From: Pectobacterium punjabense
GTDB lineage: Bacteria; Pseudomonadota; Gammaproteobacteria; Enterobacterales; Enterobacteriaceae
DNA length: 64,000 nucleotides
Assembly: GCF_012427845.1 (NCBI RefSeq)
Contig: NZ_CP038498.1
Coordinates: forward strand, 558,001 to 622,000
Reading direction: 5' to 3'
Shown one piece after another: positions 48,252-64,000 of this stretch (positions within the stretch are counted from its first letter, which is position 1; each line of letters starts with the position of its first letter). The notes under the pieces are model-generated. The model did no database searches. It was given only the letters and a program-made list of their open reading frames with translations, and was not told where the DNA came from. A program made the position numbers and the translations under genes.

Positions 48252-48968
48252 ATGCTTTCTGCTTTTATTGATGATGTTGAATGGATTACTTTTCCACGGG
48301 CAACGGACGGTGCCGCCTACCCAGGTATTACTGCTCGCTGCCATTTCCATTCTTCTGCCTATGATGATGCACTTTTCGCTGAGGCGAATATTCCTTTTTC
48401 TGATGCGCTAGAGCGTGCTGTACCGAAACGGCGGGCTGAATTTTTGGCTGGACGTTATCTTGCCAGACATGTGTTGAATAAGTTGGGTCACCCCGATTTT
48501 GTTCTGCATAGTGGGGAGGATCGTTCGCCGCAATGGCCGGAAAACATCGCTGGTTCGCTGAGTCATAATAAAGACAGCGTTCTTTGCGCTGCACATGTGC
48601 GTAATGACGAGCTGTCGTGCGTGGGGGTTGATATCGAAGGGTTTATATCCGACGAGCGTGCGCAGTCGCTGTGGCCCGGAATCATTGGTGACGAAGAGTT
48701 CCAGTGGTTTCTGGAGCGGGAGGAGTCGTTCTGCTGCCTGCTGACGGTAAGTTTCTCGGCAAAAGAGAGCCTGTTCAAGGCGCTTTATCCGCAGGTTCGG
48801 CACTACTTCGATTTTCTGGATGCCAGACTGGTGGCGCTGGATATCACTAAACGCGAGTTTGAGCTGGAGCTGTTGACCGATCTGACCCCCGTTTTTTACG
48901 CCGGACGCCGCTTTAAAGGTGCGTATCTGCTGAGAGAGTACGACGTCACTACCTTTCTCTGCTGCTAA
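48252..48968 (+). CDS. 4'-phosphopantetheinyl transferase, EntD type
   Basis: 238 residues. It transfers phosphopantetheine from CoA to the carrier-domain serines of EntB and the NRPSs in this cluster. The family motifs GSLSHNKDSVLCA, VGVDIEG (Mg2+ ligands D and E) and FSAKESLFKALYP are present; KRRAEFLAGRYLAR is the conserved N-terminal block. ATG at 48252 has GGAG upstream; earlier in-frame starts exist. It converges on the TonB receptor and sits at one edge of the siderophore locus. Confidence 0.92.
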   Translation: MLSAFIDDVEWITFPRATDGAAYPGITARCHFHSSAYDDALFAEANIPFSDALERAVPKRRAEFLAGRYLARHVLNKLGHPDFVLHSGEDRSPQWPENIAGSLSHNKDSVLCAAHVRNDELSCVGVDIEGFISDERAQSLWPGIIGDEEFQWFLEREESFCCLLTVSFSAKESLFKALYPQVRHYFDFLDARLVALDITKREFELELLTDLTPVFYAGRRFKGAYLLREYDVTTFLCC

Positions 48969-48988
48969 AAAAGCCCGCGTTAGCGGGC
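48965..48988 (-). terminator. Intrinsic terminator after the TonB receptor gene
   Basis: On the minus strand AGCCCGC pairs with GCGGGCT around a 4-nt loop and is followed by TTTTTT. 30 bp after the receptor stop; it could also act for the convergent transferase gene on the plus strand, but without a U tract there. Confidence 0.85.
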
Positions 48989-49017
48989 TCCGAGTCATTC
49001 ATTAGAACGTATTGGTA

Positions 49018-50979
49018 TCAGAACTTGTAGCTCACGCCGCCGTATATCGTCCGCCCAGACAGGAAGTAGTCGTTGTTGGTTGCGACGTAATCCCGTTTTT
49101 CGTTGGTCAGGTTAGTGAGTCCTAATTTCAGGTCCACATTTTTAACTGGCGTATAGGTGGCACCGATATCCACGGTGTTGAAGCCACGTGTTTTGCTGAC
49201 CTCTTTATCAAACAGATATTGATTGCCGGTGTATTGGTAAGCAATATAAGTCGATAGATTATCTAACGCCTGCCAGTTCAACTGCGTGTTAACCGTATTT
49301 TTTGGCGTTTGCTTCAGGCGCATTCTGGTGGTGCGATCTTCCGCGTCGACAATAGTCCAGTTAGTGGTCCAGTTCAGGTCATCTGTCACATCGACCCAGA
49401 ATGAAGTTTCAATCCCTTGAATTCGCGCTTTATTCACATTTTCATAGGTGAGGCGCGTCGCGACTCTGTCCCAGGTCTGAACCTGAATCATGTCTTTAAT
49501 ATCGTTATTAAATAAAGTAACACCCGCGCCAAAGCGCTCGGCTTCATAAGCGGTGCCGACTTCATAGCTGATTGACGTTTCAGGCTTCAAATCCGGGTTA
49601 CCTACCGTCTGGCAGCGGCCACGGCAGGCGGCAATCGCGTACGATTCCGATGATTGTGCAATTGAGGGGGCTTTAAACGCTTTGCTGACGCCGCCTTTTA
49701 CCACCCAGTTGTCGGTGAGGCTATAGGTGGCGTAAGCGCGCGGGCTGAACTCTGTACCGTAAGTCTCATGCTTATCGACACGTCCGCCGAAGGTTAATGC
49801 CAGATCGGATAACTTGAATTCATCTTGCAGGAAGAGTGCACCCTGACTCACGTCAATGGTGCCGTTGGGCAAGTTCATACTGTGTTTCAAGGAAGTGAGG
49901 CGATATTCTCCGCCACCAGTCAGTAGATGATCGCCTAGATAGCCAGAGACCTGTCCGTCAATCGTATGGTTATCCTGCGTAATGTCGGCTTTGCCATTAT
50001 TGAGTTGGGAATTATCCATCAACTCCACATTTTCATAGAAATAGCGCAGACGCGTATCGACGTTATCCCAACTACCGTTGTGCGTTAATCCCAGTCCCAG
50101 ACGCTCCATTTTTTGAATGTTACGCACAGCTGCACCATAGTTGTTCCAACGTACGTCACGGTCGTCTTTGGCATATGTGGCGTCGAAATCCAAGCTCTGT
50201 TGATCATCAATCAACCACGTTAAATTTCCCATCACGCTGTAATTATCACGTTTTTCCAGTGCATCAGTATTCCGATTTACCGACTGTTCAGTTTTCCATG
50301 CATCGCGCTCTCCGCCATCGGCCAGCAGGCTCCCCAGCAGCGTGTTTTCTATGAGTGGTCCGCTGATATAACCATTCAGACGGTTATGGTCACCACCCGA
50401 TCCTTCCATTGGCGATGTAATGTTATAGCCAATTTCGCCTTTTAGTTCGTTGCTCGGTTGGTTCAGAATGACGTTAATGACACCGCCCAGTGCATCGGCA
50501 CCGTACAGAGAGGACATCGGCCCACGGATCACTTCAACACGCTCGATTGCTGAGATGGGAATTGCGCTCAGATCGAAATCATTACCCATATTTCCAGCAA
50601 GCGCATCACGGGAATTAACCCGACGGCCATTGATGAGTAACAACGTATAGTCCGCTTTCATACCGCGGATCTTGATTTCGTTACGACCATAACTCGTCGA
50701 CGGATTGATGTTAATGCCCGGTAGCTTTTTCACCGCGTCGGAAATGTTATTCACCGACATCTTTTCCAGCTCGGCACGCGTGATGACAGAGACACTCGCG
50801 GGCGCGCTCAGCGTGGTGTGCTTCGTCTGTGTTGCTGTCACGACGATTTTTTCATCTGCCGCGTTTTCTGCCTGCGCAAGTGCAGGCAGTGCCAGTAATC
50901 CCGTCATCAGCAGGGCGTGATACACCTTGCTGTGTGGGAAATGATGATGTGAAAAACGACTTTCCGGTTTTAGCTGCAT
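49018..50979 (-). CDS. TonB-dependent catecholate siderophore receptor, CirA type
   Basis: 653-residue outer-membrane receptor. Signal peptide in the first about 36 residues (HALLMTGLLALPALAQAE), TonB box EKIVVTAT, plug domain with GMKADYTLLLINGRRVNSRDA, RGPMSSLYGADALGGVINV, then a beta-barrel ending in the C-terminal Phe (YGGVSYKF). The loop motif CRGRCQTVGNPDLKPETS closely parallels E. coli CirA (CRGACKIVGSPDLKPETS). It probably imports the ferric form of the siderophore made here. Transcribed after the MFS exporter from a Fur-box-containing promoter. Confidence 0.92.
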   Translation of the reverse strand: MQLKPESRFSHHHFPHSKVYHALLMTGLLALPALAQAENAADEKIVVTATQTKHTTLSAPASVSVITRAELEKMSVNNISDAVKKLPGININPSTSYGRNEIKIRGMKADYTLLLINGRRVNSRDALAGNMGNDFDLSAIPISAIERVEVIRGPMSSLYGADALGGVINVILNQPSNELKGEIGYNITSPMEGSGGDHNRLNGYISGPLIENTLLGSLLADGGERDAWKTEQSVNRNTDALEKRDNYSVMGNLTWLIDDQQSLDFDATYAKDDRDVRWNNYGAAVRNIQKMERLGLGLTHNGSWDNVDTRLRYFYENVELMDNSQLNNGKADITQDNHTIDGQVSGYLGDHLLTGGGEYRLTSLKHSMNLPNGTIDVSQGALFLQDEFKLSDLALTFGGRVDKHETYGTEFSPRAYATYSLTDNWVVKGGVSKAFKAPSIAQSSESYAIAACRGRCQTVGNPDLKPETSISYEVGTAYEAERFGAGVTLFNNDIKDMIQVQTWDRVATRLTYENVNKARIQGIETSFWVDVTDDLNWTTNWTIVDAEDRTTRMRLKQTPKNTVNTQLNWQALDNLSTYIAYQYTGNQYLFDKEVSKTRGFNTVDIGATYTPVKNVDLKLGLTNLTNEKRDYVATNNDYFLSGRTIYGGVSYKF

Positions 50980-51076
50980 GTCAAAGACCCCATCAAATAG
51001 TAGAAAAAAACATCCCCGTAAGTAACTCACAGTGTTGTGAGTATTGCCGACCCACTCGTTGCGTGAGTCGATCGGT

Positions 51077-52339
51077 TTATTGCCCAGTCACCTGTGCTGA
51101 CTGGCGTGCTGCCGTTCTCCGGCCGCGTTCAGCCAATTGCGGAATCAAGCGCATGGTCAGCAGCATGGCGACCAGCGCAAATACGGTGCTGGCCACGGCA
51201 AGCTGTGAGAACCCGTCAATTTTCCCCTCGGCGGAGGTGCTCAGATAAGCGGCTGAGGCAACGCTAGCAAGCCCTGATGCAATGTTGGCCGCTGTTCCCT
51301 GATAGGACATAAACGCGGCGCGCTGATGCGGTAGCGGAATACCTGCGGTAATCGCCAGCGTGCTACTAGAACGAGCCGCACTCAGCGCCATGAACAAGGG
51401 GAACATCAGATACAGAGAGAGCGATAAGGGCAACGCAAAGCCACAGAGAATGACAACCGCCAGCAGCAGTGTCGTTACTATGATTGTCTGGCTGGCATAC
51501 CCACGATCCAACAGGTTGCCACACAGCTGCATGGTCACCATGCTTGCCAGCCCGCCACAGAGATAGAGCAGGGAAATATCATCCCGAGGGAAAGCGAGGT
51601 TGAACTGAAAATAGTTGGAGAAATGGGGGATCAGCAGGAAATGTCCGAACATTTGTAGCGAAATCACCGTCAGCCCCAATAGGAAAATGGGCGATGCCAG
51701 CAGGTCTTTTAATACCGAAGCGGGCGCTGTCGTGGGTGACGAACCTTGCTGAACCCGGTGCATCGGCGGCATTGAAGGAAAAAACCACAGCACTAACAGC
51801 GCCAGTAGCAGGCCGCCCAGGCCGAAGGTATAAAACGGTGCTTGCCAGTTAATTCGGTGGGCCAACTCCAGTGACAGCGGCATGATGACAATGGCTGCGA
51901 GTGAGAAGCTCATTCCGACGTAGGCCAACTGCTTTCCGCGTTCGTTGGTTGGCACGATATCAACAACCGCCGCCATCAAGACGCCCGATGCCGGGCCAGC
52001 AACACAGCCCGCCAAAATAAACAGCAGCAAAAGATGGGTTTGACTGGTGGCAAACATGCAGGCTGCCGTCAGACCAAAGCGCAACGTCAGTAGAACAAGT
52101 AGGGCGTGTTTACGGTTAAATCTATCCAGATAAGGCGCGGCGAGGAAGCCGACGATGGCTGAGGCAAACGTTGCGCCGCCGCTAATATAGCCGATGTTTT
52201 TGGCATCCATGGAGAGTGCGCTGATGAAGTCGGGGCCTAGCGGCATCACCATCATTAGGCTACCGAGAGAAAGCATATTGATTAGCAACGCCAGATGCAC
52301 AACAGATCGGGTGTGCTGGCGGTACATGCTTTCATCCAT
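51077..52339 (-). CDS. MFS transporter, probable siderophore exporter
   Basis: 420 residues, 12 predicted membrane segments, with the AraJ/EntS-like motif PYLDRFNRKHALL between segments 2 and 3. Upstream in-frame GTG at 52360 lacks a Shine-Dalgarno; the ATG at 52339 is preferred. First gene of the exporter-receptor unit and divergent from entC, with two Fur-box-like sites between. Export of the siderophore or a precursor is inferred from position. Confidence 0.87.
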   Translation of the reverse strand: MDESMYRQHTRSVVHLALLINMLSLGSLMMVMPLGPDFISALSMDAKNIGYISGGATFASAIVGFLAAPYLDRFNRKHALLVLLTLRFGLTAACMFATSQTHLLLLFILAGCVAGPASGVLMAAVVDIVPTNERGKQLAYVGMSFSLAAIVIMPLSLELAHRINWQAPFYTFGLGGLLLALLVLWFFPSMPPMHRVQQGSSPTTAPASVLKDLLASPIFLLGLTVISLQMFGHFLLIPHFSNYFQFNLAFPRDDISLLYLCGGLASMVTMQLCGNLLDRGYASQTIIVTTLLLAVVILCGFALPLSLSLYLMFPLFMALSAARSSSTLAITAGIPLPHQRAAFMSYQGTAANIASGLASVASAAYLSTSAEGKIDGFSQLAVASTVFALVAMLLTMRLIPQLAERGRRTAARQSAQVTGQ

Positions 52340-52414
52340 GACAGGCTCACATTTAGACACAGTTAGTAAAATATTGGCGCAGTCTAGCGCAGCTTAATTC
52401 CGCTGACAATGAAT

Positions 52415-52433
52415 GATAACTATTTTCATTATC
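52415..52433. promoter_or_regulatory. Fur-box-like site proximal to the exporter gene
   Basis: GATAACTATTTTCATTATC matches the 19-bp Fur consensus GATAATGATAATCATTATC at 15 of 19 positions. It lies 76 bp upstream of the exporter start. Confidence 0.75.
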
Positions 52434-52616
52434 ATCTGTGATGTGGGTTTTATAATCAATACATTCCTATTGCTAATCATTAACGGTTATGAAAGATGAA
52501 CAATAAAATTGATTAACATCAATATAACCCGCAGTTTTTGGGAGGAAATAACCATTTTGAGGAAGGATTGACCGAACACGTTACTTCAGTGTAATTTAAC
52601 TTCGCTTAATATAAAT

Positions 52617-52635
52617 GATAATGATTTTAATAATC
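52617..52635. promoter_or_regulatory. Fur-box-like site proximal to entC
   Basis: GATAATGATTTTAATAATC matches the Fur consensus at 15 of 19 positions, with the first nine bases perfect. It lies 36 bp before the entC start and would repress the biosynthetic operon under iron sufficiency. Confidence 0.78.
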
Positions 52636-52670
52636 ATTGGTATTTAATTTGCGAGCGCAGGAGCTGTCTT

Positions 52671-53867
52671 GTGGATACACTGATTACAGAAACTGAAACA
52701 TTTAGCGGGCTAACTTATTCAGAACAGACCGCTTTTTTATATGCATCGGAACACCGAAGCCTTTCTACTTCCGGCTTATTTGAACGTATTTCGTCCCCTG
52801 TTTGTACTCCGGGCTCGCACGATGACAGGCTTAGCTCAGCAATCGCGCAGGCGTTTCAGCGCGCGCGTCAAGCAGGGCAGTCGCTGCCTATTGTTGTAGG
52901 GGCAATCCCCTTTGATACCACACAACCTTCTTGTCTCTATGTGCCTGATAGTTACACCGTTACGACGAAATCGGAACTCGTTAGCCGCGCCCGTAAATAC
53001 ACGACTGCGGCACCTAAAGCATCAACGCTAAACAGTGTTCCTGATGAATCTCAGTTCAAATCCATTGTGGCAGAGGCCGTTGAGCGCTTCCGACGCGGTG
53101 AACTAAGCAAAGCGGTGCTGTCGCGCATTCTGGACATTGAGCTGACGGAACCCGTTAAGGCTCAGACGATCCTCAACAACCTGATGGTACAGAATGCGGG
53201 TGGCTATCACTTCTCGCTGCCGCTGCCGGACGGTTCGGTATTACTGGGTGCCAGCCCGGAACTGCTGCTGCGTAAGCAGGGGAGTGTGATTGTCTCTAAT
53301 CCGCTGGCGGGCTCGGCACGACGGATGAGCGATGAACATCTGGACTACCTGAACAGCCAGCGTTTACTGAATTCTGGCAAAGATAAGCACGAGCATAAGC
53401 TGGTGGTGGACGACATTCGCCAACGCCTGATGCCGCTGTGCGTGTCGTTAACTATTCCATCGGTCCCCTCGCTGATGAACACCGCTTCAATGTGGCATTT
53501 GTCCACGGCGATTAGAGGCGAACTGGTGAACCCTGAGATGACAGCGCTTCAGGTCGCCTGTCAGCTACACCCCACCCCCGCACTCTGCGGTTTCCCCACG
53601 CAGGAAGCGCGCCAGCTGATCGCAGAATTGGAACCGCATGACCGTGGCGTATTCAGCGGCATTGTCGGCTGGTGTGATGCCAACGGTGATGGCGAATGGG
53701 CGATCGCGATTCGCTGCGGCACCATCAAACACAATAAAGTCTGCCTGTTTGCTGGCGCGGGCATTGTTGAGGCATCCGTCCCCGAGGATGAATGGGCTGA
53801 AACCGCTGCCAAATTAAACACGATGCTGAATGCATTTGGGCTTAACTCAGGTGTGGATGGACTATGA
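52671..53867 (+). CDS. entC: Isochorismate synthase
   Basis: 398 residues; converts chorismate to isochorismate, the first step of 2,3-dihydroxybenzoate synthesis. Conserved blocks: [63 protein letters not shown] and [10 protein letters not shown]. It starts with GTG, preceded by AGGAG and a 7-nt spacer. The stop overlaps the entE start (ATGA). Confidence 0.96.
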
Positions 53868-55489
53868 GCATTGAATTTACGCCCTGGCCAGAGGCGCTGG
53901 CACAGCGCTACCGTGAGAAAGGCTATTGGGTCGGCTTGCCGTTAACGGACGCCTGGGAGCGCCACTTGGCGACGCAGCCGGATGCCGTTGCGGTCGTGTG
54001 CGGTGAGCGTCAGTGGAGCTATCGGGAACTGGACCAACAGTCTTCCGCGCTGGCATCTCGCTTGACGGAACATGGCTTGCGCAGTGGCGATACCGCGCTG
54101 GTGCAACTGCCAAACGTAGCCGAATTTTACCTGACCTTTTTTGCATTGCTGAAAATGGGGGTCGCGCCAGTTAACGCGCTGTTCAGTCATAACAAGCTGG
54201 AGCTGCTGTCGTATGCCACGCAGATCGAACCACGCTTATTGATTGCATCAGCAGAGCATCCGCTGTTTGGCAACGGTGAGTTTCTGGATCGGCTACAGAC
54301 GCAGGTTCCTCGCCTGCAAACGGTGGTGATGCTCGGCGACAGCCCGCTAGGGCACAGTCTGACTGACTGGCTGCAACCGAATGCTTCGGCCAGTCAGTAT
54401 CAGCCTTCCGCGTCGGCGCAGGTCGCCTTCTTCCAGCTTTCTGGCGGCAGTACCGGTACGCCGAAGCTGATTCCTCGCACCCATGACGATTACTACTACA
54501 GCGTGCGTCGTAGCGTAGAAATTTGCGAGCTGACGCCACAAACCCGCTACCTGTGTGCGTTGCCCGCACCGCATAACTTCCCGTTAAGTTCGCCCGGTTC
54601 GCTCGGCGTATTTTACGCTGGTGGACGCGTCGTGCTGGCGTCCGATCCGGGAGCGATGACCTGTTTCCCGTTAATTGAGCGCCATCAGATCGATATTACG
54701 TCGCTGGTGCCGCCCGCTGCCGCGCTGTGGGTTCAGGCGGCAGAGCAGTTTGGTGCGGCGTTGCGTAGCCTGAAGGTTTTGCAGGTGGGGGGCGCGAAGT
54801 TAAGTGAAGCCGTTGCCCGGCGCATCCCGGCAGTCTTGGGCTGCCAGCTGCAGCAGGTGCTGGGGATGGCGGAAGGGCTGGTGAATTACACCCGACTGGA
54901 TGATAGCGATGAACATATCTTCACCACGCAAGGCTACCCGATGAGCCCGGACGATGAGGTGAAAGTGCTGGATATTGATGGTAATCCGGTGCCGAGAGGC
55001 GAGGCAGGGCTGTTGGCGACGAGAGGTCCGTACACCTTCCGTGGCTATTACCGCAGCCCGGAACACAATGCCCGAGCTTTCGACGGAGAAGGTTTCTATC
55101 ACTCGGGTGATGTGGTGCAAATGACCGAAGAGGGCTATTTGCGCGTGGTCGGGCGGGAGAAAGATCAGATCAACCGCGGTGGAGAAAAGATTGCCGCCGA
55201 AGAAATCGAAAACCTGCTGCTCAAGCATGACGGCATTCTCCATGCCGCGCTGGTGTCCATGCCTGACCCGGTTATGGGCGAAAAGAGCTGTGCTTTTCTG
55301 GTGGTCAGCGATCCTTCGCTGAAAGCCATCACATTAAGGAAATATCTGCGTAATCAGGGTATTGCTGAATTCAAACTGCCAGACCGCTTCGAGATGATCG
55401 ACACCTTGCCCGTCACACCCGTCGGCAAGATTGATAAGAAATCACTCCGTCAGCGCATTCAGACCCAACTTAGCATTCAAAATAAATAA
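53864..55489 (+). CDS. entE: 2,3-Dihydroxybenzoate-AMP ligase
   Basis: 541-residue stand-alone adenylation enzyme (E. coli EntE 536). It activates 2,3-DHB and loads it on the EntB carrier domain. Motifs: [18 protein letters not shown] (P loop), the aryl-acid pocket [39 protein letters not shown] and C-terminal [11 protein letters not shown]. Coupled to entC by overlap. Confidence 0.97.
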
Positions 55490-55499
55490 GGATTTTGTG

Positions 55500-56375
55500 A
55501 TGGCAATCCCTTCTATTGCTTCGTATCCCCTGCCGTGCGCACAGGATTTCCCAGACAACAAGGTGTCCTGGGCGTTTGAACCTGGACGTGCGGTACTGCT
55601 GATTCACGACATGCAGGACTATTTCGTGAATTTCTATGGCGCGGACAGTCCGCTGATGCAACAGCTGATTGAAAACATTGCGGCATTGCGAGCCTACTGC
55701 AAAGCGCAGGGCGTTCCGGTGGTGTATACCGCGCAACCTAATGCGCAGAGCGCGGCCGACCGCGCGCTGCTGAACGATATGTGGGGCGCAGGGCTGAATA
55801 ATCACCCTGAAAAACAGCGTGTTGTGAGCGCACTGGCACCCGATGAACATGACACCGTGCTGGTGAAATGGCGCTACAGCGCATTCCATCGTTCCCCGCT
55901 GGAACCGATGATGAAAGAGATGGGCAAAGATCAACTGATTATCTGCGGTGTTTATGGGCATATCGGCTGCATGATTACCGCGACGGATGCCTTCATGCGC
56001 GATATCAAGCCCTTCATGGTCGGCGATGCGATTGCGGATTTCTCACTTCAGGAACACCAGATGGCGCTGAAATATGTGGCGACGCGCGCCGGACGGGTGG
56101 TTAGCACAGCAGAACTCACAGGAGTAAAAATGGCACAGGCACTCACGAAACAAGGGCTGAGAGCGCATCTGCTGAGTTTGATCGACGAAGAAGACGATCA
56201 GTTCGATGAAGATGAAAATCTGATCGACTATGGCCTGGACTCGGTGCGTATGATGGCGCTGTTGACCGAATGGCGCAATCAGGGCGTGACGCTGAGCTTT
56301 GTCGATCTGGCGCGTAACCCCAGCCTGAATGCCTGGTGGGCGCTGATCGAAAAACAGCAGGGAGCCGTATTATGA
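55500..56375 (+). CDS. entB: Isochorismatase fused to aryl carrier protein
   Basis: 291 residues. The N-terminal hydrolase domain (about 1-210; LLIHDMQDYFVNFYG, catalytic-loop region LVKWRYSAFHRSPLE, GVYGHIGCM) makes 2,3-dihydro-2,3-DHB. The C-terminal carrier domain has the phosphopantetheine site LIDYGLDSVRMM. The ATG at 55500 has AAGGA with a 7-nt spacer. Its stop overlaps the NRPS1 start as ATGA. Confidence 0.96.
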   Translation: MAIPSIASYPLPCAQDFPDNKVSWAFEPGRAVLLIHDMQDYFVNFYGADSPLMQQLIENIAALRAYCKAQGVPVVYTAQPNAQSAADRALLNDMWGAGLNNHPEKQRVVSALAPDEHDTVLVKWRYSAFHRSPLEPMMKEMGKDQLIICGVYGHIGCMITATDAFMRDIKPFMVGDAIADFSLQEHQMALKYVATRAGRVVSTAELTGVKMAQALTKQGLRAHLLSLIDEEDDQFDEDENLIDYGLDSVRMMALLTEWRNQGVTLSFVDLARNPSLNAWWALIEKQQGAVL

Positions 56376-59300
56376 AGCCGTTGAGCGTGGCGCAGTGCGG
56401 GCTGTGGTTAGGCCATGCCTTGAACGAGGATAAGGCGACGTTCAACACGGCGGAGTGCATCGCATTTGATGGCAAAATCGATATTGAAGCCATGTTAAGC
56501 GTAATCCGTCAGGCGGTGATGGAATGCGAATGCCTGTACTGCCAGTTTGTTGAGGTTGCGGGTGAACATGCAGAACAACCAGAGATCGGTTTTGTCGCTT
56601 CGCAACTACCCGTTCCGATTGGCGTGCTGCCGATTGTCGAACTGTTGCCTGTGCCGATGGCGGATGAAGAGCAGACGATACGCCAGTGGGCGCGTGATGA
56701 AATCTCCCAGCCGCTGGATTTGCTAAACGGATTACCTTGCCGCTTTGCGCTGCTGTGCGGTGAAAAGCGTGATTTTCTCTACAGCTGCGTTCACCACATT
56801 GCCTTGGACGGTTTCGGCACCACGATGCTGTTTCAACGTATCGCCCAGATCTACAGCGCGCTGACGGCAGGACAATCTGCACCGATGGCCGAGTTTGGCC
56901 CGTTCAGCGAAGTACTGGAAGAGGAGCGGCAGCGCGATGCCAGCGGGCAGACAGCACAGGCGCGTGATTTCTGGTTGGAAACGCTGAACGCGATGCCGGA
57001 ACCGGTCAGTTTCAGCGAGAAGAAAGCACCGATAGCGGCGCGTTTTTTGCGTCAAAGCTGTGATATGCCTGCGGATCTCTGGCAGCCGCTAACGGCGCTG
57101 TGTGAAGGCAATAAAATCAGCTGGCCGGATCTATTTTTAGCGATGTTGGCGACACACCTGAAACTGGTATCCGGCAGCGACCGACTGACGTTCGGCATGA
57201 TGGTGATGAACCGAATCGGTTCCGCCTCGCTGACGGTGCCGAGCATGCAGATGAATATCGTGCCGCTGTGCATTCAGGTGGATGAGCAGGCGGATTTTGT
57301 GGCGCTGGCGCAGCAGGTTGCCCGCACCAAACGCACGTTGCGTCGTCATCAGCATTATCGCTATGAGCATTTACGGCGCGATCTGAACCGCGTCGGCGGT
57401 GAACAGCGCCTGTTCGGGCCGCTGATCAATATCATGCCATTCGATCATCCGCTCAAGTACGGATCGCTGTCGTCCAGCACGCTGAATCTCAGCGCTGGGC
57501 CAGTAGAAGATCTGACGATCGAGATCCATTTTAAACCGGATGGCACCCCGGTGTTGGACTTTGATGCCAATCCTGCCTGTTACAGCGCGGAAGCGCTTGC
57601 CAGCCTGCAAGAAACCCTGTTCACGCTGCTTCAGCGTTGGCTGGCGCAGCCGCAGCAAACCAGCGGCGAGCTGCTAGAACGCTGGCTGCGTGAAGAACGT
57701 GAACTGGCGCTGCTCACCAGCCGTGAGCCTGAGCCGTTTGTTGAACCCGTTCTGACGGCGATTGCCAAGGCTGCGCGTAAAAACCCGCATCATATCGCGT
57801 TAGTGCAGCGCGATCGGCAATACAGCTATCAGCAACTGCTGGATCTGAGCGGTCAGGCCGCCGCGGCGTTGCATGAGCGTGGCGTACAGTCCGGCGAACG
57901 TATCGGCATTATGCTGAACCGTAGCCCGGAAACCATTATCAGTTTGCTGGCCGTGATGCAGTGCGGCGCGGTTTATGTGCCACTCGACCCTGAACAGCCA
58001 CGCGAACGGCAGCAGCACATTATCCAGATTGCTGAGCTGCGTACGATTGTGACGCAGGCGGACTACCAGCATCGGCTAGCCTCCGTTTTTTCTGGTGAGA
58101 TCGTTCTGGCAGGGCATCTTTTATCATCCCACGCGCAGGCCGTGGCTCTGCCGACTGTGGAGTCGAAAGCAGGGCAGATTGCCTATGTCATGTTTACTTC
58201 TGGATCGACGGGATTGCCGAAAGGCGTGGAGATCGGCGCTAGCGCGTTGGATCACTTCACGGCGGCGGCACGCCAACGCTATGGCCTGCGTGCAACGGAT
58301 CGCGTGCTGCAATTTGCCCCGTTTAACTTTGATGCCAGCATTGAAGAGATTTTTGCCACGCTGACCAGCGGTGCGACGCTGGTGCTGCGCACCGATGAGA
58401 TGCTGGAATCGATTCCGACCTTTGTTGAGCAGGTAGAAGCACAGGCGATTACGTTGCTCGATCTGCCGACCGCATTCTGGAACGAATGGGTGATCGGGCT
58501 GAAAACCGGCACGCTGGCGATGCCCTCCGCTCTGCGTGCCATCATCATTGGCGGTGAAGCCGTGTATCCCGAACAACTGGTGCAGTGGCAACGCTATGCG
58601 CCGGATACGCTGCGCTTAATCAACACCTATGGTCCAACGGAAACCACGGTGGTGGCGACCACTTGCGATCTGCAAACGCAGTCTGCCGATGTGGCACGGC
58701 TTCCTATCGGTCTGCCACTGGCAGGCGTCAACGCGCTGATTTTGGCGGTGGGCGATCGCCCTGCGGCAGAAGGGGAACTGGTGCTGCTGGGACCAACGTT
58801 AGCAGCAGGTTACATCGGTACGGAGCACTCGGCGTTTGCGCCGTTGGCGGTGGGCGATCGGCAACGGCCTGCCTACCGCACGGGCGACAGAGTACGGCTG
58901 GAAAAAGGGCGGCTGCTGTACCTCGGGCGGATGGATAACGAATTTAAAATCAGCGGCTATCGGATTCAGCCAGGGGAAGTCGAAGCTCATCTGCTGGCAC
59001 AGCCTGATATCGACGAAGCCTGCGTGCAGGGCATGGTTTATCCCAACGGCGTGCGGCGTCTGGTGGCGTTTGTCGCGACCCAAGAGGGAGAAATCGATGC
59101 ACGTGCGCTGAAGCAGCGCCTGAGCAGTGTGCTACCGCCTGCGATGATCCCGACCGATTACCGAGCCTTCCACCAGTTGCCGAAAACCGGCTCCAACAAG
59201 GTCGATCGCAAACGTCTGCTGGCGGAATACCGCGATGAAGCTCCTACGCAGGCGTTGGCCAACGAAACCGAGAACCGGGTCAGCGCTATCTGGCAGCAGA

Positions 59301-59515
59301 TCCTTGGTGTATCGGGGATTCAATCGCGGGATAACTTCTTCGAGCTGGGCGGGCAGTCATTGCAGACCATTCAGATTGTTAATCGTCTGGCTGCTGAATT
59401 TTCCGTCAGCATCAAAGTGTCTGATGTATTCGATCACCCACAGCTCAGCGACTTCTGCCGTTATCTGGATGACAGGCTGTCGCAGGATGAAAACAGCGTG
59501 GAAATGGTGTGGTAG
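56372..59515 (+). CDS. NRPS module 1 (C-A-T), predicted to activate a basic amino acid
   Basis: 1047 residues. Condensation domain about 1-440 with HHIALDG at 141-147; its N-terminus resembles the first domain of EntF, as expected for an acceptor of DHB from EntB. Adenylation domain about 460-960 with YVMFTSGSTGLPKGVEIG, YGPTETTV and GRMDNEFKISGYRIQPGE. Thiolation domain with FFELGGQSL (Ser at about 996). No thioesterase. The specificity residues read by eye against GrsA are D-A-E-D-I-G-T-V-V-K; the acidic pair suggests Lys, Orn or Arg. Final motif is SNK rather than NGK. Overlaps entB. Confidence 0.93.
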   Translation: MKPLSVAQCGLWLGHALNEDKATFNTAECIAFDGKIDIEAMLSVIRQAVMECECLYCQFVEVAGEHAEQPEIGFVASQLPVPIGVLPIVELLPVPMADEEQTIRQWARDEISQPLDLLNGLPCRFALLCGEKRDFLYSCVHHIALDGFGTTMLFQRIAQIYSALTAGQSAPMAEFGPFSEVLEEERQRDASGQTAQARDFWLETLNAMPEPVSFSEKKAPIAARFLRQSCDMPADLWQPLTALCEGNKISWPDLFLAMLATHLKLVSGSDRLTFGMMVMNRIGSASLTVPSMQMNIVPLCIQVDEQADFVALAQQVARTKRTLRRHQHYRYEHLRRDLNRVGGEQRLFGPLINIMPFDHPLKYGSLSSSTLNLSAGPVEDLTIEIHFKPDGTPVLDFDANPACYSAEALASLQETLFTLLQRWLAQPQQTSGELLERWLREERELALLTSREPEPFVEPVLTAIAKAARKNPHHIALVQRDRQYSYQQLLDLSGQAAAALHERGVQSGERIGIMLNRSPETIISLLAVMQCGAVYVPLDPEQPRERQQHIIQIAELRTIVTQADYQHRLASVFSGEIVLAGHLLSSHAQAVALPTVESKAGQIAYVMFTSGSTGLPKGVEIGASALDHFTAAARQRYGLRATDRVLQFAPFNFDASIEEIFATLTSGATLVLRTDEMLESIPTFVEQVEAQAITLLDLPTAFWNEWVIGLKTGTLAMPSALRAIIIGGEAVYPEQLVQWQRYAPDTLRLINTYGPTETTVVATTCDLQTQSADVARLPIGLPLAGVNALILAVGDRPAAEGELVLLGPTLAAGYIGTEHSAFAPLAVGDRQRPAYRTGDRVRLEKGRLLYLGRMDNEFKISGYRIQPGEVEAHLLAQPDIDEACVQGMVYPNGVRRLVAFVATQEGEIDARALKQRLSSVLPPAMIPTDYRAFHQLPKTGSNKVDRKRLLAEYRDEAPTQALANETENRVSAIWQQILGVSGIQSRDNFFELGGQSLQTIQIVNRLAAEFSVSIKVSDVFDHPQLSDFCRYLDDRLSQDENSVEMVW

Positions 59516-59520
59516 GGAAA

Positions 59521-60294
59521 ATGATGAACAAGGCACAACCTCTTCAGTTTGATTTCCGTGGGAAAACGGTGTGGGTAACCGGTGCGGCGAGCGGCATTGG
59601 AGAAAGTATTGCCCGCCAGTTTGTCGCGCTGGGCGCGAACGTGATCGGCTTCGACCGTGCATTTCAACCGTATAACGATCGCCCGTTTACCAGCGTGACG
59701 CTGGATATTAGCGAGCCGAATCGCGTGGCGGCGGTGTGCCGTCAGCAGCTGGCGGAAACGGGGCTTGATGTTCTGGTTAACGCCGCCGGGATTCTGCGTT
59801 TAGGTGACATTGATACGCTGAGTGCGGACGACTGGCACCAGTGCATTAACGTCAATGCCTCCGGCGTATTTTATCTGCTGAACGCACTGGTTCCGCACTT
59901 TAAGCAGCAGCGTCGCGGTGCGATTGTTTGCGTCGGCTCTAATGCCGCCCATGTCCCCCGTCTACAGATGGCGGCGTACTGCGCCTCGAAAGCGGCGCTT
60001 ACCAGTCTGTCTCACTGTGCTGGATTGGAGCTGGCGCCTTACGGTGTGCGCTGCAATCTGGTATCGCCTGGTTCGACGGATACGCCGATGCAGCGCGGCA
60101 TGTGGCACAGCGCTGATGCCGAGCAGCGCACTATCGCGGGCTTTCCTGACCAGTACAAGCTGGGAATTCCGCTGGGTAAGATTGCTCAGCCGGATGAGAT
60201 CGGCAATACCGTGGTTTTTCTGGCTTCCGATCTGGCCAGCCACATCACCATGCAGGACGTAGTGGTGGACGGCGGGGCAACGCTGACGGCCTGA
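59521..60294 (+). CDS. entA: 2,3-Dihydro-2,3-dihydroxybenzoate dehydrogenase
   Basis: 257-residue short-chain dehydrogenase that oxidises dihydro-DHB to 2,3-DHB with NAD+. Cofactor motif VTGAASGIGESIA, NAAG, and catalytic YCASKAAL following the Ser region VCVGSNAAH. The first of two consecutive ATGs is used (59521). It is placed between the two NRPS genes, six bases after the NRPS1 stop. Confidence 0.95.
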   Translation: MMNKAQPLQFDFRGKTVWVTGAASGIGESIARQFVALGANVIGFDRAFQPYNDRPFTSVTLDISEPNRVAAVCRQQLAETGLDVLVNAAGILRLGDIDTLSADDWHQCINVNASGVFYLLNALVPHFKQQRRGAIVCVGSNAAHVPRLQMAAYCASKAALTSLSHCAGLELAPYGVRCNLVSPGSTDTPMQRGMWHSADAEQRTIAGFPDQYKLGIPLGKIAQPDEIGNTVVFLASDLASHITMQDVVVDGGATLTA

Positions 60295-60316
60295 TTTGCG
60301 AAGAGAGTGACAAGTC

Positions 60317-63300
60317 ATGAAAGATATCGTAACGCTGTTAAAGCAGTTGGAACGGCAGGGTGTTCGTCTGGCGTTAAATGCACAAGGGCAGTTGGTTTCT
60401 CAGTCCAATAAAGACGCGATCACGGCAGAGATTGGGAGCACGATTAAGGAAAACAAGGACGCCATCGTGCGTTGCCTGACGGCGCAACAGGCGTTTGAAC
60501 GCCCCATCGCGCCGCAGAATGCGACGTCTGGCCCGCTGTCATCATCGCAAAGTGGGCTGTGGTTTATCGAGCAATACGAAGAGCAATCGCACCTCTACAA
60601 CATGCCGGTCTATTTTCGTCTGACCGGCACGCTGGATGTGGCCGCACTGGAGTTTGCCTTTGACGCGTTGGCACAGCGCCATGCCAGCCTGCGCACCCGT
60701 TTTGTGGTCAATGAACAGGGCAAGGGTGAGCAGCGTATCGATGCCTATCAGCCGTTTGTGATACAGCATGATGACTTCTCACTGTTACCGGAAGCCGAAC
60801 GGGAGGCGCGTTTACAACAGCAGGTGAAAGCGGAAATCAGCCGTCCGTTCGATCTCACGGCAGGCGATCTCACCCGTGTGCGGCTGGTAACGATGAACGA
60901 ACGGGTGCACGTTCTGATGATCACCCAGCATCACATTATTTCCGATGGTTGGTCGGTGAAGAATATGTTTGCGGACTTCAAGCCGGCCTTTTTGGCCTGT
61001 CAGAACCGCCAACCCTATCCCGTCGAGACCACGCAGCTTAACTATATCGACTACGCACACTGGTTTAACTCTGCGTCGTTTCTCGATTACCACAATGAAT
61101 TCAAACCGTTCTGGGTTGAGCGGTTGACGGGTATTCCTGAAGTACATAGCCTGCCGCTGGATAAACCGCGTCCGGCACACCAGAACAGTGGCGGTGAGGT
61201 GATCTTCTCCGCGATTAACAACGATTTGTGGGATAAATTTAAGCGTCAGTGTCAGCGCTACAACACGTCTAATTTCATTGGCCTGCATGCGGTGTTTTCC
61301 CTGATGCTGGCGCGCATCAGCGGTGAGAAAGATATCGTCATTGGTTCACCGCTGGCCTACCGCGAGCGGCCGGATATCGAAGATGTCGTCGGCTTCTTCG
61401 TTAACACCATCGTGCTGCGCACCCAGTTGCAGGATCAACAGAGTTTTGTCGATTACCTGCAATACTGCCGTGAGCAAGATCTCTCCGCTTTCGATCATCA
61501 GCTTTACCGTTTTGAAGCGCTGAGCGAGGCGATCGGCTCCGATCGCACCACGGCGATCAACCCGATCTTTCAGGTGATGCTGGTTTATCAGGCTAAAGTG
61601 GATTTTAACGATCTGATCCCCGGCTGTGATGCGGCGGAGGAAACCTCGCCGGTGCTGCCGGCGAAGACGGATATCTCGGTCAAAGTGACGGAGCTGATGG
61701 GCGAGGTGCGGCTGGACTGGCTGTTTGCCACTGCGCTGTTTGAGCGTCAGACGATCCAGTACTACGCCGACCGCTTTATCCGGCTGATCGAAGCCGTGGT
61801 GGAGAGCCCGGAAACCGATGTCTGGCATCTGCCGCTGATGGAAGCGGATCGATTTGCCGCCGTGTTGGCGGAAACACAGCAGTTGCCGCGTAGCTATCCG
61901 CAGCCGCAACTGACGGTAACCGACGTGATTGAAGCGGTGGCTCAGCGCGATCCACAGCAACTGGCCGTTGCCTTTGATGGCGAGAGTCTCGCTGACTCGC
62001 TGACTTATGCTGAGCTGAATAGGCAGGCTAACCAGCTAGCACATTGGTTATACCGCTTGGGGCTGGGTGAGCAGTCGCTGGTCGGCGTGTTGGCGAAGCG
62101 CGATCGCTATTTTGTCATTGCGCTGCTGGCCGTCTGGAAAGCAGGCGCAGCCTATGTACCATTGGACCCTGATTACCCGCCAGAGCGGCTACGCCACATC
62201 ATTACCGATGCCAATCTTTCCGTCATTCTCGGTGGTGATGGGCAACAACTGGCGCAGTGGTCAGCCGAGCAGTGTATCGATCTGACCGATCCTACGGTTG
62301 CCGCGCAGTGGCACGATCTGCCGGGCGATGAACCGCCAGCCATTCTGCGCCATGCACAGCAGCTGGCACAGGTGATCTACACCTCGGGATCGACCGGTCT
62401 GCCGAAGGGCGTCATGATCGAACACGGTTCGCTGATCAATCTGCTGGACGATCATCGCGATCGCATTGCGTTCACGCCGCAAAGTACCATGTTCAACTGC
62501 ATGTCGCTGTCGTTTGACGCCGGTAACATGACGACGCTGCTGCCGCTGAGCAGCGGTGGCACGCTGGTGTTTGGCGAACCCAACGATCGTGCGATTGTGC
62601 AGGCGGAACAGGCAGGGGCGACGCACCTGATCCTACCAACAGCGCTGATGTCGATTCTCGATCCCAAACAGGTTAACGGCATTCAGGCCATTGGCATGGG
62701 CGGTGAAGCGTGCCCGAATGCCGTGGTGGAAAACTGGGCCGATAAGGTTGCGCTGTACAACATGTACGGGCCGACGGAGTGTACCGTTACGGCGTTGAGC
62801 ACCCGCCTGCGTAAAGGTCAGCCTGTCACCATCGGTAAGCCCATCGCTCATATTCAGGCGCTGATTCTGGATGCGGCTGGACAGCTGTGTCCGGTGGGCG
62901 TGCCGGGAGAGCTATGCCTTGCGGGACTTGGTCTGGCGCGTGGCTACCTTAATCAACCGCAGATGACCGCCAGCCGCTTCGAGCACATCACGCTACACGA
63001 CGTGAACAATACGGGGCTGGGTACGGTGACCGTGCGCATTTATCGCACAGGCGATAAAGCCAGACTGCTGAACAACGGTGACTATGAATACTGTGGCCGT
63101 ATTGATGAGCAGATCAAACTGCGTGGCTATCGCATAGAACCGGGTGAAATCGAGGCACAGCTGGCGGCGGTCTGCCCGTCTCTGAAGCAGGTTAAAGTCA
63201 TTGTGGCGCCGGTGGGGAGTCGTCCGGCGCTGGTCGCTTATGGCACGGTGAAAGTAGGTAGCAGCACGCCTGAACCTGCTGCCGTGCTGATTGATGTCGC

Positions 63301-64000
63301 GAAGCACCTGCCGGAATACATGGTGCCTTTCCGGTTGATTGTGCTGGAAGAGATGCCGCTGACGCCAAACGGCAAGCTGGATACGAAACAGCTGCCGCCG
63401 GTGCTGGAAGCGAACGACGGCGACGGTGAAGCCGATAACCCGTTGGAAGCGGACGTGCTAGCGATTTGGCGCAGCGTGCTGAATACGCCGCTGGGCGTTG
63501 AGGATGATTTTTTCCGCTTAGGCGGTGATTCCATCCTCAGTATCCAACTGACGACGCGACTGCGCAGCGCAGGCTATGTCTGCACGGTGAAAGACGTTTT
63601 TGAAGCGAAGAGCGTGCGGCGTCTGTGTCGCGTGCTGGCGCAGAATAATCGTGATGTCGGTATCGTTGCAGAGCAGGGCACGCTGGAAGGCGAATTCGCG
63701 CTGCTGCCGATTCAGCGCTGGTTTATGGATCAAGCGCTGGTATGTCCTGAACACTGGAATCAGGCGGCGATGATCCAATTACCAGAGGTGGATGCCAGAC
63801 GGTTTACCACCATGTTGCAGGCGCTGATGGCGCAACATGACGCGCTGCGTCTGGCCTGTGATGCCCAAGGGCAACGCTATCTGGCAGATGTGCCTTGTCC
63901 TGTTGTGTCGACGCTGGATTATCGCCAGCTTGGCGACGATGGCCTACAGCAGGCGTTTACCGCGTTGCAGAGTGAATTCGATCCCGCGCAGGGAAGAACG
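60317..64000 (+). CDS. NRPS module 2 with docking segment (TubC-C-A-T-E..., 3' end outside window)
   Basis: The frame is open from the ATG at 60317 to the window end (1228 codons, no stop). Residues about 1-55 (IVTLLKQLERQGVRLALNAQ, then KENKDAIVRCL) fit a TubC-type N-terminal docking domain. Condensation about 72-510 with HHIISDG at 205-211. Adenylation about 535-1030 with VIYTSGSTGLPKGVMIEH, MYGPTECTV, YRTGDKARLL and NGKLD. Thiolation with FFRLGGDSI (Ser about 1072); the D before S is typical of carriers before epimerases. An epimerisation-domain start follows (LLPIQRWFMDQ, then HWNQA). Hand-read specificity code D-A-M-I-G-G-M-V-T-K; substrate not recognised. 22 bp after entA. Confidence 0.92.
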   Translation, partial: MKDIVTLLKQLERQGVRLALNAQGQLVSQSNKDAITAEIGSTIKENKDAIVRCLTAQQAFERPIAPQNATSGPLSSSQSGLWFIEQYEEQSHLYNMPVYFRLTGTLDVAALEFAFDALAQRHASLRTRFVVNEQGKGEQRIDAYQPFVIQHDDFSLLPEAEREARLQQQVKAEISRPFDLTAGDLTRVRLVTMNERVHVLMITQHHIISDGWSVKNMFADFKPAFLACQNRQPYPVETTQLNYIDYAHWFNSASFLDYHNEFKPFWVERLTGIPEVHSLPLDKPRPAHQNSGGEVIFSAINNDLWDKFKRQCQRYNTSNFIGLHAVFSLMLARISGEKDIVIGSPLAYRERPDIEDVVGFFVNTIVLRTQLQDQQSFVDYLQYCREQDLSAFDHQLYRFEALSEAIGSDRTTAINPIFQVMLVYQAKVDFNDLIPGCDAAEETSPVLPAKTDISVKVTELMGEVRLDWLFATALFERQTIQYYADRFIRLIEAVVESPETDVWHLPLMEADRFAAVLAETQQLPRSYPQPQLTVTDVIEAVAQRDPQQLAVAFDGESLADSLTYAELNRQANQLAHWLYRLGLGEQSLVGVLAKRDRYFVIALLAVWKAGAAYVPLDPDYPPERLRHIITDANLSVILGGDGQQLAQWSAEQCIDLTDPTVAAQWHDLPGDEPPAILRHAQQLAQVIYTSGSTGLPKGVMIEHGSLINLLDDHRDRIAFTPQSTMFNCMSLSFDAGNMTTLLPLSSGGTLVFGEPNDRAIVQAEQAGATHLILPTALMSILDPKQVNGIQAIGMGGEACPNAVVENWADKVALYNMYGPTECTVTALSTRLRKGQPVTIGKPIAHIQALILDAAGQLCPVGVPGELCLAGLGLARGYLNQPQMTASRFEHITLHDVNNTGLGTVTVRIYRTGDKARLLNNGDYEYCGRIDEQIKLRGYRIEPGEIEAQLAAVCPSLKQVKVIVAPVGSRPALVAYGTVKVGSSTPEPAAVLIDVAKHLPEYMVPFRLIVLEEMPLTPNGKLDTKQLPPVLEANDGDGEADNPLEADVLAIWRSVLNTPLGVEDDFFRLGGDSILSIQLTTRLRSAGYVCTVKDVFEAKSVRRLCRVLAQNNRDVGIVAEQGTLEGEFALLPIQRWFMDQALVCPEHWNQAAMIQLPEVDARRFTTMLQALMAQHDALRLACDAQGQRYLADVPCPVVSTLDYRQLGDDGLQQAFTALQSEFDPAQGRT

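What the first reader, a model, noticed from the sequence alone, without database searches (positions are those of the whole stretch)
48252..64000. Two-NRPS catechol siderophore locus unlike enterobactin
The order C-E-B-NRPS1-A-NRPS2, with an EntD-type transferase, a CirA-like receptor and an exporter, matches my memory of the amonabactin operon (amoCEBFAG) and, in part, chrysobactin. NRPS1 should add a basic amino acid to DHB; NRPS2 has an epimerase. No thioesterase is seen so far. The product is probably a linear DHB-(Lys/Orn/Arg)-(D-amino acid) peptide, possibly with more modules outside the window.
Basis: partly seen in the sequence, partly recalled or inferred. Interest (0 to 1): 0.78.

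Follow-up and report, generated by a model that had tools for sequence, protein, structure and literature searches.

The report
Amonabactin-type siderophore operon in Pectobacterium
This stretch of a soft-rot plant bacterium's chromosome encodes a complete assembly line for amonabactin, an iron-scavenging molecule known from Aeromonas; it is a known kind of system, but papers on this plant pathogen call what seem to be the same genes "enterobactin", which the sequence does not support.

Summary
The genome is a Pectobacterium. The locus is a complete amoCEBFAGH operon: NRPS2 ends as a C-A-T-E-C-T protein 2.65 kb past the window edge and is followed by a third NRPS protein, AmoH, a lone glycine-type adenylation domain. 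All seven genes are colinear with the Aeromonas salmonicida operon (48-67% identity), and the adenylation pockets match it at nine of nine positions in AmoF and eight of nine in AmoG and AmoH. The likely products are therefore the known amonabactins. Two Fur-box-like sites lie between the operon and its divergent exporter/receptor genes. AmoF is in 23 of 25 Pectobacterium genomes; none of the 25 has an EntF over the curated cut-off. Papers call what is probably this operon "enterobactin"; one antiSMASH-based paper lists "amonabactin P 750" for P. betavasculorum. Newer details: AmoH here carries a probable half-condensation domain that Aeromonas AmoH lacks, and Stutzerimonas AmoG lacks the last C-T. 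A new member of a known kind; moderate interest, mainly for correcting a name.

The parts
48252..48968 (+). EntD-type 4'-phosphopantetheinyl transferase (ORF open from GTG 48195; ATG at 48252)
   Evidence: Pfam 4PPT_N and ACPS over cut-off; best NCBIfam model EntD, 89 bits, below its cut-off of 169; a relative in 3 of 5 compared stretches
49018..51030 (-). CirA-like TonB-dependent receptor, likely ferric-amonabactin receptor
   Evidence: NCBIfam CirA 395 bits, below its cut-off of 745; 55% identical to a receptor near the amo operon of A. salmonicida; found in 4 of 5 compared stretches, not on that of A. dhakensis
51077..52360 (-). MFS exporter, MxcK-like
   Evidence: 182 bits to MxcK, below its cut-off of 525; 56% identical to an MFS gene near the A. 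salmonicida amo operon; found in 4 of 5 compared stretches, not on that of A. dhakensis
52361..52670 (.). Divergent intergenic region with two Fur-box-like sites (52415-52433 and 52617-52635)
   Evidence: Recalled 19-base Fur consensus, up to 3 mismatches: 2 matches in the window, both here, both with 3 mismatches; 0.02 expected, 0 of 100 shuffles with 2. A looser pattern gives the same two sites, 0.08 expected, 1 of 100 shuffles with 2
52671..53867 (+). amoC, isochorismate synthase
   Evidence: TIGR00543 over cut-off; 48% to A. salmonicida
53864..55489 (+). amoE, 2,3-DHB-AMP ligase
   Evidence: NF008192 951 bits vs cut-off 783; 66% to A. salmonicida
55500..56375 (+). amoB, isochorismatase fused to aryl carrier domain
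   Evidence: Pfam Isochorismatase and PP-binding; 61% to A. salmonicida
56372..59515 (+). amoF, NRPS C-A-T, Lys-type pocket DAELIGTVV
   Evidence: Domains; best NCBIfam model MxcG, 970 bits, below its cut-off of 2300; same nine pocket residues in 28 of 34 named loci. The ATG start is supported by a TGA just upstream of it in three relatives
59509..60294 (+). amoA, 2,3-dihydro-DHB dehydrogenase
   Evidence: NF006074 403 bits vs cut-off 312; 67% to A. salmonicida
60317..64000 (+). amoG, NRPS TubC_N-C-A-T-E-C-T, pocket DAMLGGMVT; runs on to virtual position 66652. amoH follows at virtual 66649-68751, outside the window
   Evidence: L006:2318-8653 and L006:8650-10752

Best explanation
The locus is a complete amonabactin biosynthesis operon (amoCEBFAGH) with its own receptor, exporter and carrier-protein activator, probably repressed by iron through Fur. 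AmoC, AmoB and AmoA make 2,3-dihydroxybenzoate (DHB), AmoE loads it on the carrier domain of AmoB, and AmoF joins it to lysine. AmoG adds an aromatic residue (Phe or Trp) and epimerises it. A second DHB-Lys is added by reusing AmoF, with AmoG's extra C-T pair as the likely acceptor. AmoH, a lone A domain acting in trans, optionally supplies glycine. The products should be the linear bis-catechol amonabactins. Shown here: gene content, order, domains, pocket residues, Fur-like sites, no thioesterase domain in the NRPS proteins. Inferred from the Aeromonas work: iterative use of AmoF, optional Gly, Phe/Trp alternation. Inferred by me: the role of the last C-T. Unresolved: how the chain is released.
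For: Seven-gene order identical to the published operon. All seven proteins colinear with A. salmonicida at 48-67% identity, AmoH over residues 233-697 only. Pocket residues over 34 named loci: AmoF DAELIGTVV in 28; AmoG DAM[LM][GA]GMVT in 34; AmoH DILQLGC[IV]W in 33. AmoF is best matched by MxcG. Active-site motifs intact in the C, E and T domains of AmoF and AmoG. No Ser pocket, no NRPS thioesterase; the four condensation-type hits in the genome all lie in this locus. Receptor and exporter lie near amo in 4 of 5 compared stretches. Two Fur-like sites in the divergent promoter region.
Against: No product has been measured. AmoG's pocket differs from A. salmonicida at one position (L for M at the site equivalent to GrsA 278) and AmoH's at one (I for V). 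AmoH has an N-terminal extension of about 200 residues that Aeromonas AmoH lacks. No periplasmic binding protein, FecCD permease or ABC ATPase is among the 19 neighbouring proteins scanned, whereas such genes lie near amo in Motilimonas and Stutzerimonas, and FecCD genes in A. salmonicida; 17 FecCD-family hits lie elsewhere in the genome and were not assigned. The meaning of the pocket codes is recalled.
Confidence: 0.9

Rival explanations
1. It is an enterobactin operon, as the Pectobacterium literature says (entAFBECD; ECA0481 = entA). EntF-type serine loading and cyclisation would give the tri-DHB-serine ring.
For: The DHB genes are of the kind shared with enterobactin, and two papers use that name (passages).
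Against: AmoF has no thioesterase and no Ser pocket; 0 of 25 Pectobacterium genomes have an EntF over the curated cut-off of 2400 bits, the best being 1156; 1 of 14 control genomes passes it, the two that match at all being E. coli and B. subtilis. An NRPS gene directly after entA is the amo order; that E. coli lacks one there is recalled.
Confidence: 0.03
2. Same machinery but a new congener: the changed AmoG pocket or the AmoH half-C extension alters the aromatic residue or the glycine step.
For: One AmoG pocket residue differs; the AmoH extension is constrained (median dN/dS 0.18 over 22 comparisons) and has no room in 14 of 15 Aeromonas and 5 of 5 Stutzerimonas loci.
Against: Eight of nine AmoG and eight of nine AmoH pocket residues equal those of A. 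salmonicida; L/M and I/V are similar side chains.
Confidence: 0.12
3. A chrysobactin- or vanchrobactin-type product (DHB, basic amino acid, Ser), made by a two-module NRPS with thioesterase.
For: 3 of 25 Pectobacterium genomes carry such an NRPS at another locus.
Against: The window's genome has no condensation domain outside this locus, no Ser pocket here and no NRPS thioesterase.
Confidence: 0.02

Closest known systems
Amonabactin operon amoCEBFAGH of Aeromonas (A. hydrophila, A. salmonicida)
   Same: Gene order, domain layout of AmoF and AmoG, lone Gly-type AmoH, pocket residues (9, 8 and 8 of 9); in A. salmonicida also a related receptor, exporter and EntD nearby
   Different: 48-67% identity; AmoH here has an extra stretch of about 200 residues; no adjacent FecCD permease genes; receptor and exporter sit upstream and divergent instead of downstream
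'Enterobactin' operon entAFBECD of P. atrosepticum (around ECA0476-ECA0482) in the literature
   Same: Same genus; the gene letters read backwards give the order here; an NRPS gene follows entA (passages); probably the orthologous locus
   Different: The name; the SCRI1043 sequence was not read here
Myxochelin synthetase MxcG and exporter MxcK
   Same: Best NCBIfam models for NRPS1 and the exporter, both below their cut-offs
   Different: MxcG matches only positions 4-1050 of 1442 and NRPS1 ends after its T domain; that MxcG ends in a reductase is recalled
Chrysobactin synthetase CbsF
   Same: DHB-Lys catechol siderophore NRPS of the same bacterial family (product recalled)
   Different: The CbsF-like proteins of G015 and G010 end in a Ser module with thioesterase; this locus does not

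Membership tests
Amonabactin (amoCEBFAGH) | Gene order C-E-B-F-A-G-H | tested here: met
   published order from passages of PMC8949500 and PMC11861348
Amonabactin (amoCEBFAGH) | AmoF C-A-T with Lys pocket | tested here: met
   nine of nine pocket residues as in A. salmonicida; that they mean Lys rests on recalled codes and the MxcG match
Amonabactin (amoCEBFAGH) | AmoG C-A-T-E-C-T with Phe/Trp pocket, no thioesterase | tested here: met
   eight of nine pocket residues as in A. salmonicida; substrate not testable here
Amonabactin (amoCEBFAGH) | AmoH lone A domain with Gly pocket | tested here: met
   DILQLGCIW here, DILQLGCVW in A. salmonicida; no carrier domain found; an extra N-terminal stretch is present here
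Amonabactin (amoCEBFAGH) | Production of the four amonabactins | not testable with these tools
   needs LC-MS
Enterobactin | EntF with Ser A domain and thioesterase | tested here: not met
Chrysobactin / vanchrobactin | Terminal Ser module with thioesterase | tested here: not met
Myxochelin | MxcG with C-terminal reductase domain (recalled) | tested here: not met
   NRPS1 ends after its T domain and matches MxcG 4-1050 of 1442

The most novel reading that the evidence does not exclude
In Pectobacterium, Samsonia and Motilimonas, AmoH is not a bare A domain but a half-condensation-domain/A fusion. The catalytically empty C-lobe may serve as a docking platform that delivers glycine in trans to a carrier domain AmoH does not own, so the optional-glycine step may be controlled differently here and the congener mix may differ from Aeromonas.
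Probability: 0.2. Interest if true: 0.5.

Novelty: new member of a known kind. Interest (0 to 1): 0.4.

Why it matters
Published virulence and stress work on Pectobacterium attributes phenotypes to enterobactin (passages of PMC8431002). If the product is amonabactin, the molecule, its receptor and its chemistry must be reinterpreted, and LC-MS can decide. The comparison also suggests which parts of the unusual amonabactin assembly line can vary: the AmoH half-C stretch, and AmoG's last C-T in Stutzerimonas.

Tried and rejected
Enterobactin, chrysobactin, vanchrobactin and myxochelin were considered and rejected on domain content. Horizontal transfer was considered because GC in amoC-amoH is 0.572 against 0.521 in window 1-48000; it was not pursued and no tree was built, the operon being in 23 of 25 genomes of the genus. 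For the AmoH N-terminus, hhalign against condensation domains was weak (probability 9%, E 0.0036) and a Pfam scan of six sequences gave only weak, unrelated-looking matches (best TubC_N, E 0.019); the profile search of PDB sequences gave the better evidence. Alignment A2 held one row taken on the wrong strand (L029) and was discarded. Three AmoF rows with a TGA in the matched span looked like broken genes; the TGA lies upstream of the likely ATG start in all three.

Full report
What is there. The window is C1:558001-622000 of a 4,793,778-base single-contig genome. The genus is Pectobacterium: genomes that the tool places in the same genus have contigs of the same length as named Pectobacterium records (for example 4,995,896 bases, P. 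aroidearum L6), and the 12 best named AmoH relatives, at 85-90% identity, are 11 Pectobacterium and Samsonia erythrinae. The finding's genes are present in the stated order: EntD-type transferase, CirA-like receptor, MxcK-like exporter, then on the + strand EntC, EntE, EntB with a carrier domain, NRPS1 (C-A-T), EntA and NRPS2. Upstream lie release factor 3, BON-domain, TatD-type and nucleoside-transporter genes.

Beyond the window. Reading on (L006) shows that NRPS2 is 2111 aa, ending at virtual window position 66652, and that a 700-aa protein at 66649-68751 overlaps its end by four bases. Pfam finds in NRPS2 a TubC_N docking domain, three condensation-type domains, one A domain and two carrier domains, and no thioesterase. 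Motifs identify the middle condensation-type domain as an epimerase (HHLVIDAVS) and the outer two as condensation domains (HHIISDGWS, HHSVIDGWS), giving C-A-T-E-C-T. In the 700-aa protein Pfam finds only an A domain, residues 218-691. The next gene is a convergent outer-membrane efflux protein. The order is therefore C-E-B-F-A-G-H, the published amonabactin operon (passages of PMC8949500, and PMC11861348).

Comparison with Aeromonas. All seven proteins match the A. salmonicida operon colinearly: AmoC 48%, AmoE 66%, AmoB 61%, AmoF 58%, AmoA 67%, AmoG 56%, AmoH 54% (residues 233-697 only). Pocket residues were read at nine positions; their equivalence to GrsA numbering is recalled. Over the 34 named loci, read: AmoF is DAELIGTVV in 28, DAEVIGTVV in 3 and DAEAIGTVV in 1 (all four Stutzerimonas), and not readable in 2 (in L085 only a paralogue was matched; L087 had no match). 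AmoG is DAMLGGMVT in 12, DAMMGGMVT in 21 and DAMMAGMVT in 1. AmoH is DILQLGCIW in 13 and DILQLGCVW in 20, with no match in 1 (L087). That these mean Lys, Phe/Trp and Gly rests on recalled codes, on the MxcG match of AmoF (970 bits, below that model's cut-off) and on the review's account of the Aeromonas operon.

How it most likely works. The review describes AmoE-AmoF acting twice to attach DHB-Lys, AmoG taking Phe or Trp, and Gly being optional. The locus here has each synthetase part of that scheme. Chain release has no visible enzyme: the genome-wide Thioesterase scan gave two weak hits over the cut-off, in open frames of 256 and 259 aa, and two below it, all far from this locus. Two Fur-like sites lie in the 310-base gap between exporter and amoC. 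They are the only two matches in the window at up to three mismatches, each with three; 0.02 expected and 0 of 100 shuffles with two. A looser pattern finds the same two sites with 0.08 expected and 1 of 100 shuffles with two. A fur deletion in P. carotovorum subsp. brasiliense is reported to raise siderophore output (passages of PMC5435245).

Neighbours. Relatives of the receptor and exporter lie near amo in 4 of 5 compared stretches (Samsonia, Motilimonas, A. salmonicida, Stutzerimonas; not on the A. dhakensis stretch), and an EntD relative in 3 of 5. A periplasmic binding protein, FecCD permease and ABC ATPase genes lie near amo in Motilimonas and Stutzerimonas, and two FecCD genes in A. 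salmonicida (10 neighbours scanned). None is among the 19 proteins scanned around the locus here; the 17 FecCD-family hits of the genome lie elsewhere.

Spread. AmoF is found in 23 of 25 held Pectobacterium genomes; in three rows the match holds one TGA, which lies at residue 5, before the likely ATG start. None of the 25 has an EntF over the curated cut-off of 2400 bits. One of the 14 control genomes passes it; the two that match at all are E. coli and B. subtilis, and the output does not say which passes. Other NRPSs of about 1300 aa occur in many of the 25 at up to 551 bits. The two genomes without AmoF (G001, G015), and G010 which has AmoF, hold the three best matches (1117-1156 bits): an NRPS with a Ser-type pocket and a thioesterase motif. 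The full domain scan was done for G015 alone: three condensation-type domains, two A, two T and a thioesterase, beside a Fes-like esterase, a receptor and an EntB-like gene. In G001 the protein runs over the contig ends and was read in two pieces, not joined. This is a chrysobactin-type layout (the comparison with CbsF is recalled). G015's contig length, 5,043,228, appears in the genome-length row of PMC6963963, where by my reading of the column order it is P. wasabiae. Outside the genus, related operons are in Samsonia, Motilimonas, Aeromonas and Stutzerimonas.

The literature name. PMC8431002 (passages) calls ECA0481 of P. atrosepticum entA, says an NRPS gene ECA0482 lies downstream, names the product enterobactin, and says pectobacteria do not make chrysobactin. 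PMC6963963 (passages) writes the operon entAFBECD and finds entF and entB missing from P. wasabiae and P. parmentieri. This order and this gap fit the amo locus. I did not read the SCRI1043 sequence, so the identity of the two loci is inferred. PMC10991766 (passages) lists amonabactin P 750 among antiSMASH predictions for P. betavasculorum, whose locus is L061 here. A search of the held library for amonabactin with Pectobacterium returned 3 papers; of that one I saw passages, of the other two only the listing. So the assignment is partly in print as a prediction; I saw no discussion of it in those passages, and most subscription papers are not in the library.

The AmoH extension. Residues 1 to about 205 of AmoH are shared by 11 Pectobacterium loci and Samsonia (one of them, L065, from residue 20) and by Motilimonas (from residue 38). 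In 14 of 15 Aeromonas loci only 9-74 residues fit between the end of amoG and the start of the AmoH match, and in 5 of 5 Stutzerimonas loci 15-28; A. lusitana is unclear, its match beginning at residue 149 inside the amoG frame. A profile of six extension sequences matches the C-terminal lobe of a condensation domain in microcystin synthetase B (8hlk, E 0.00012); the two other PDB hits are also NRPS proteins but weak (E 0.15 and 1.1). hhalign against condensation domains of AmoG and AmoF was weak and Pfam did not recognise it, so this is probable, not proven. The stretch shows constraint: median dN/dS 0.18 against 0.07 for the A domain over 22 comparisons, which all share the window's copy and are not independent. 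The review says that an N-terminal extension is needed for trans-complementation by a stand-alone module in ramoplanin synthesis; that is the model for the docking idea.

Verdict. Its interest is the likely correction of a published name and a few comparative details.

Noticed in passing
L074, L077, L082, L085, L086 (Stutzerimonas): AmoG in 5 of 5 Stutzerimonas loci stops right after the epimerase region (match ends at 1515-1531 of the window protein) and abuts AmoH, so it lacks the last C-T, yet a Gly-type AmoH is kept; the product may be shorter or differently loaded. In L085 the start of AmoG was not matched. Whether a C-T lies elsewhere in these genomes was not searched.
   Followed up: partly
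L145 (G015), L146 (G010), L147 and L148 (G001): Three of 25 Pectobacterium genomes carry a chrysobactin-type NRPS with Ser pocket and thioesterase motif; two of them lack amoF.
   Followed up: partly
L006:10832-20000, minus strand: Next to the operon lie an outer-membrane efflux protein and a very large ORF (over 2000 aa) of repeated Ig/cadherin-like domains, apparently a secreted adhesin.
   Followed up: no
G002, G018, G023: Some sister genomes carry very large NRPS frames (4163, 7433 and 8584 aa the longest listed) with no counterpart in the window's genome.
   Followed up: no
G000:C1:4324880-4325605: One IucA/IucC-type siderophore synthetase gene lies elsewhere in the genome, a likely second, NRPS-independent siderophore route.
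   Followed up: no
window 52671-64000: The operon's GC (0.572 through amoH) is well above that of window 1-48000 (0.521).
   Followed up: no
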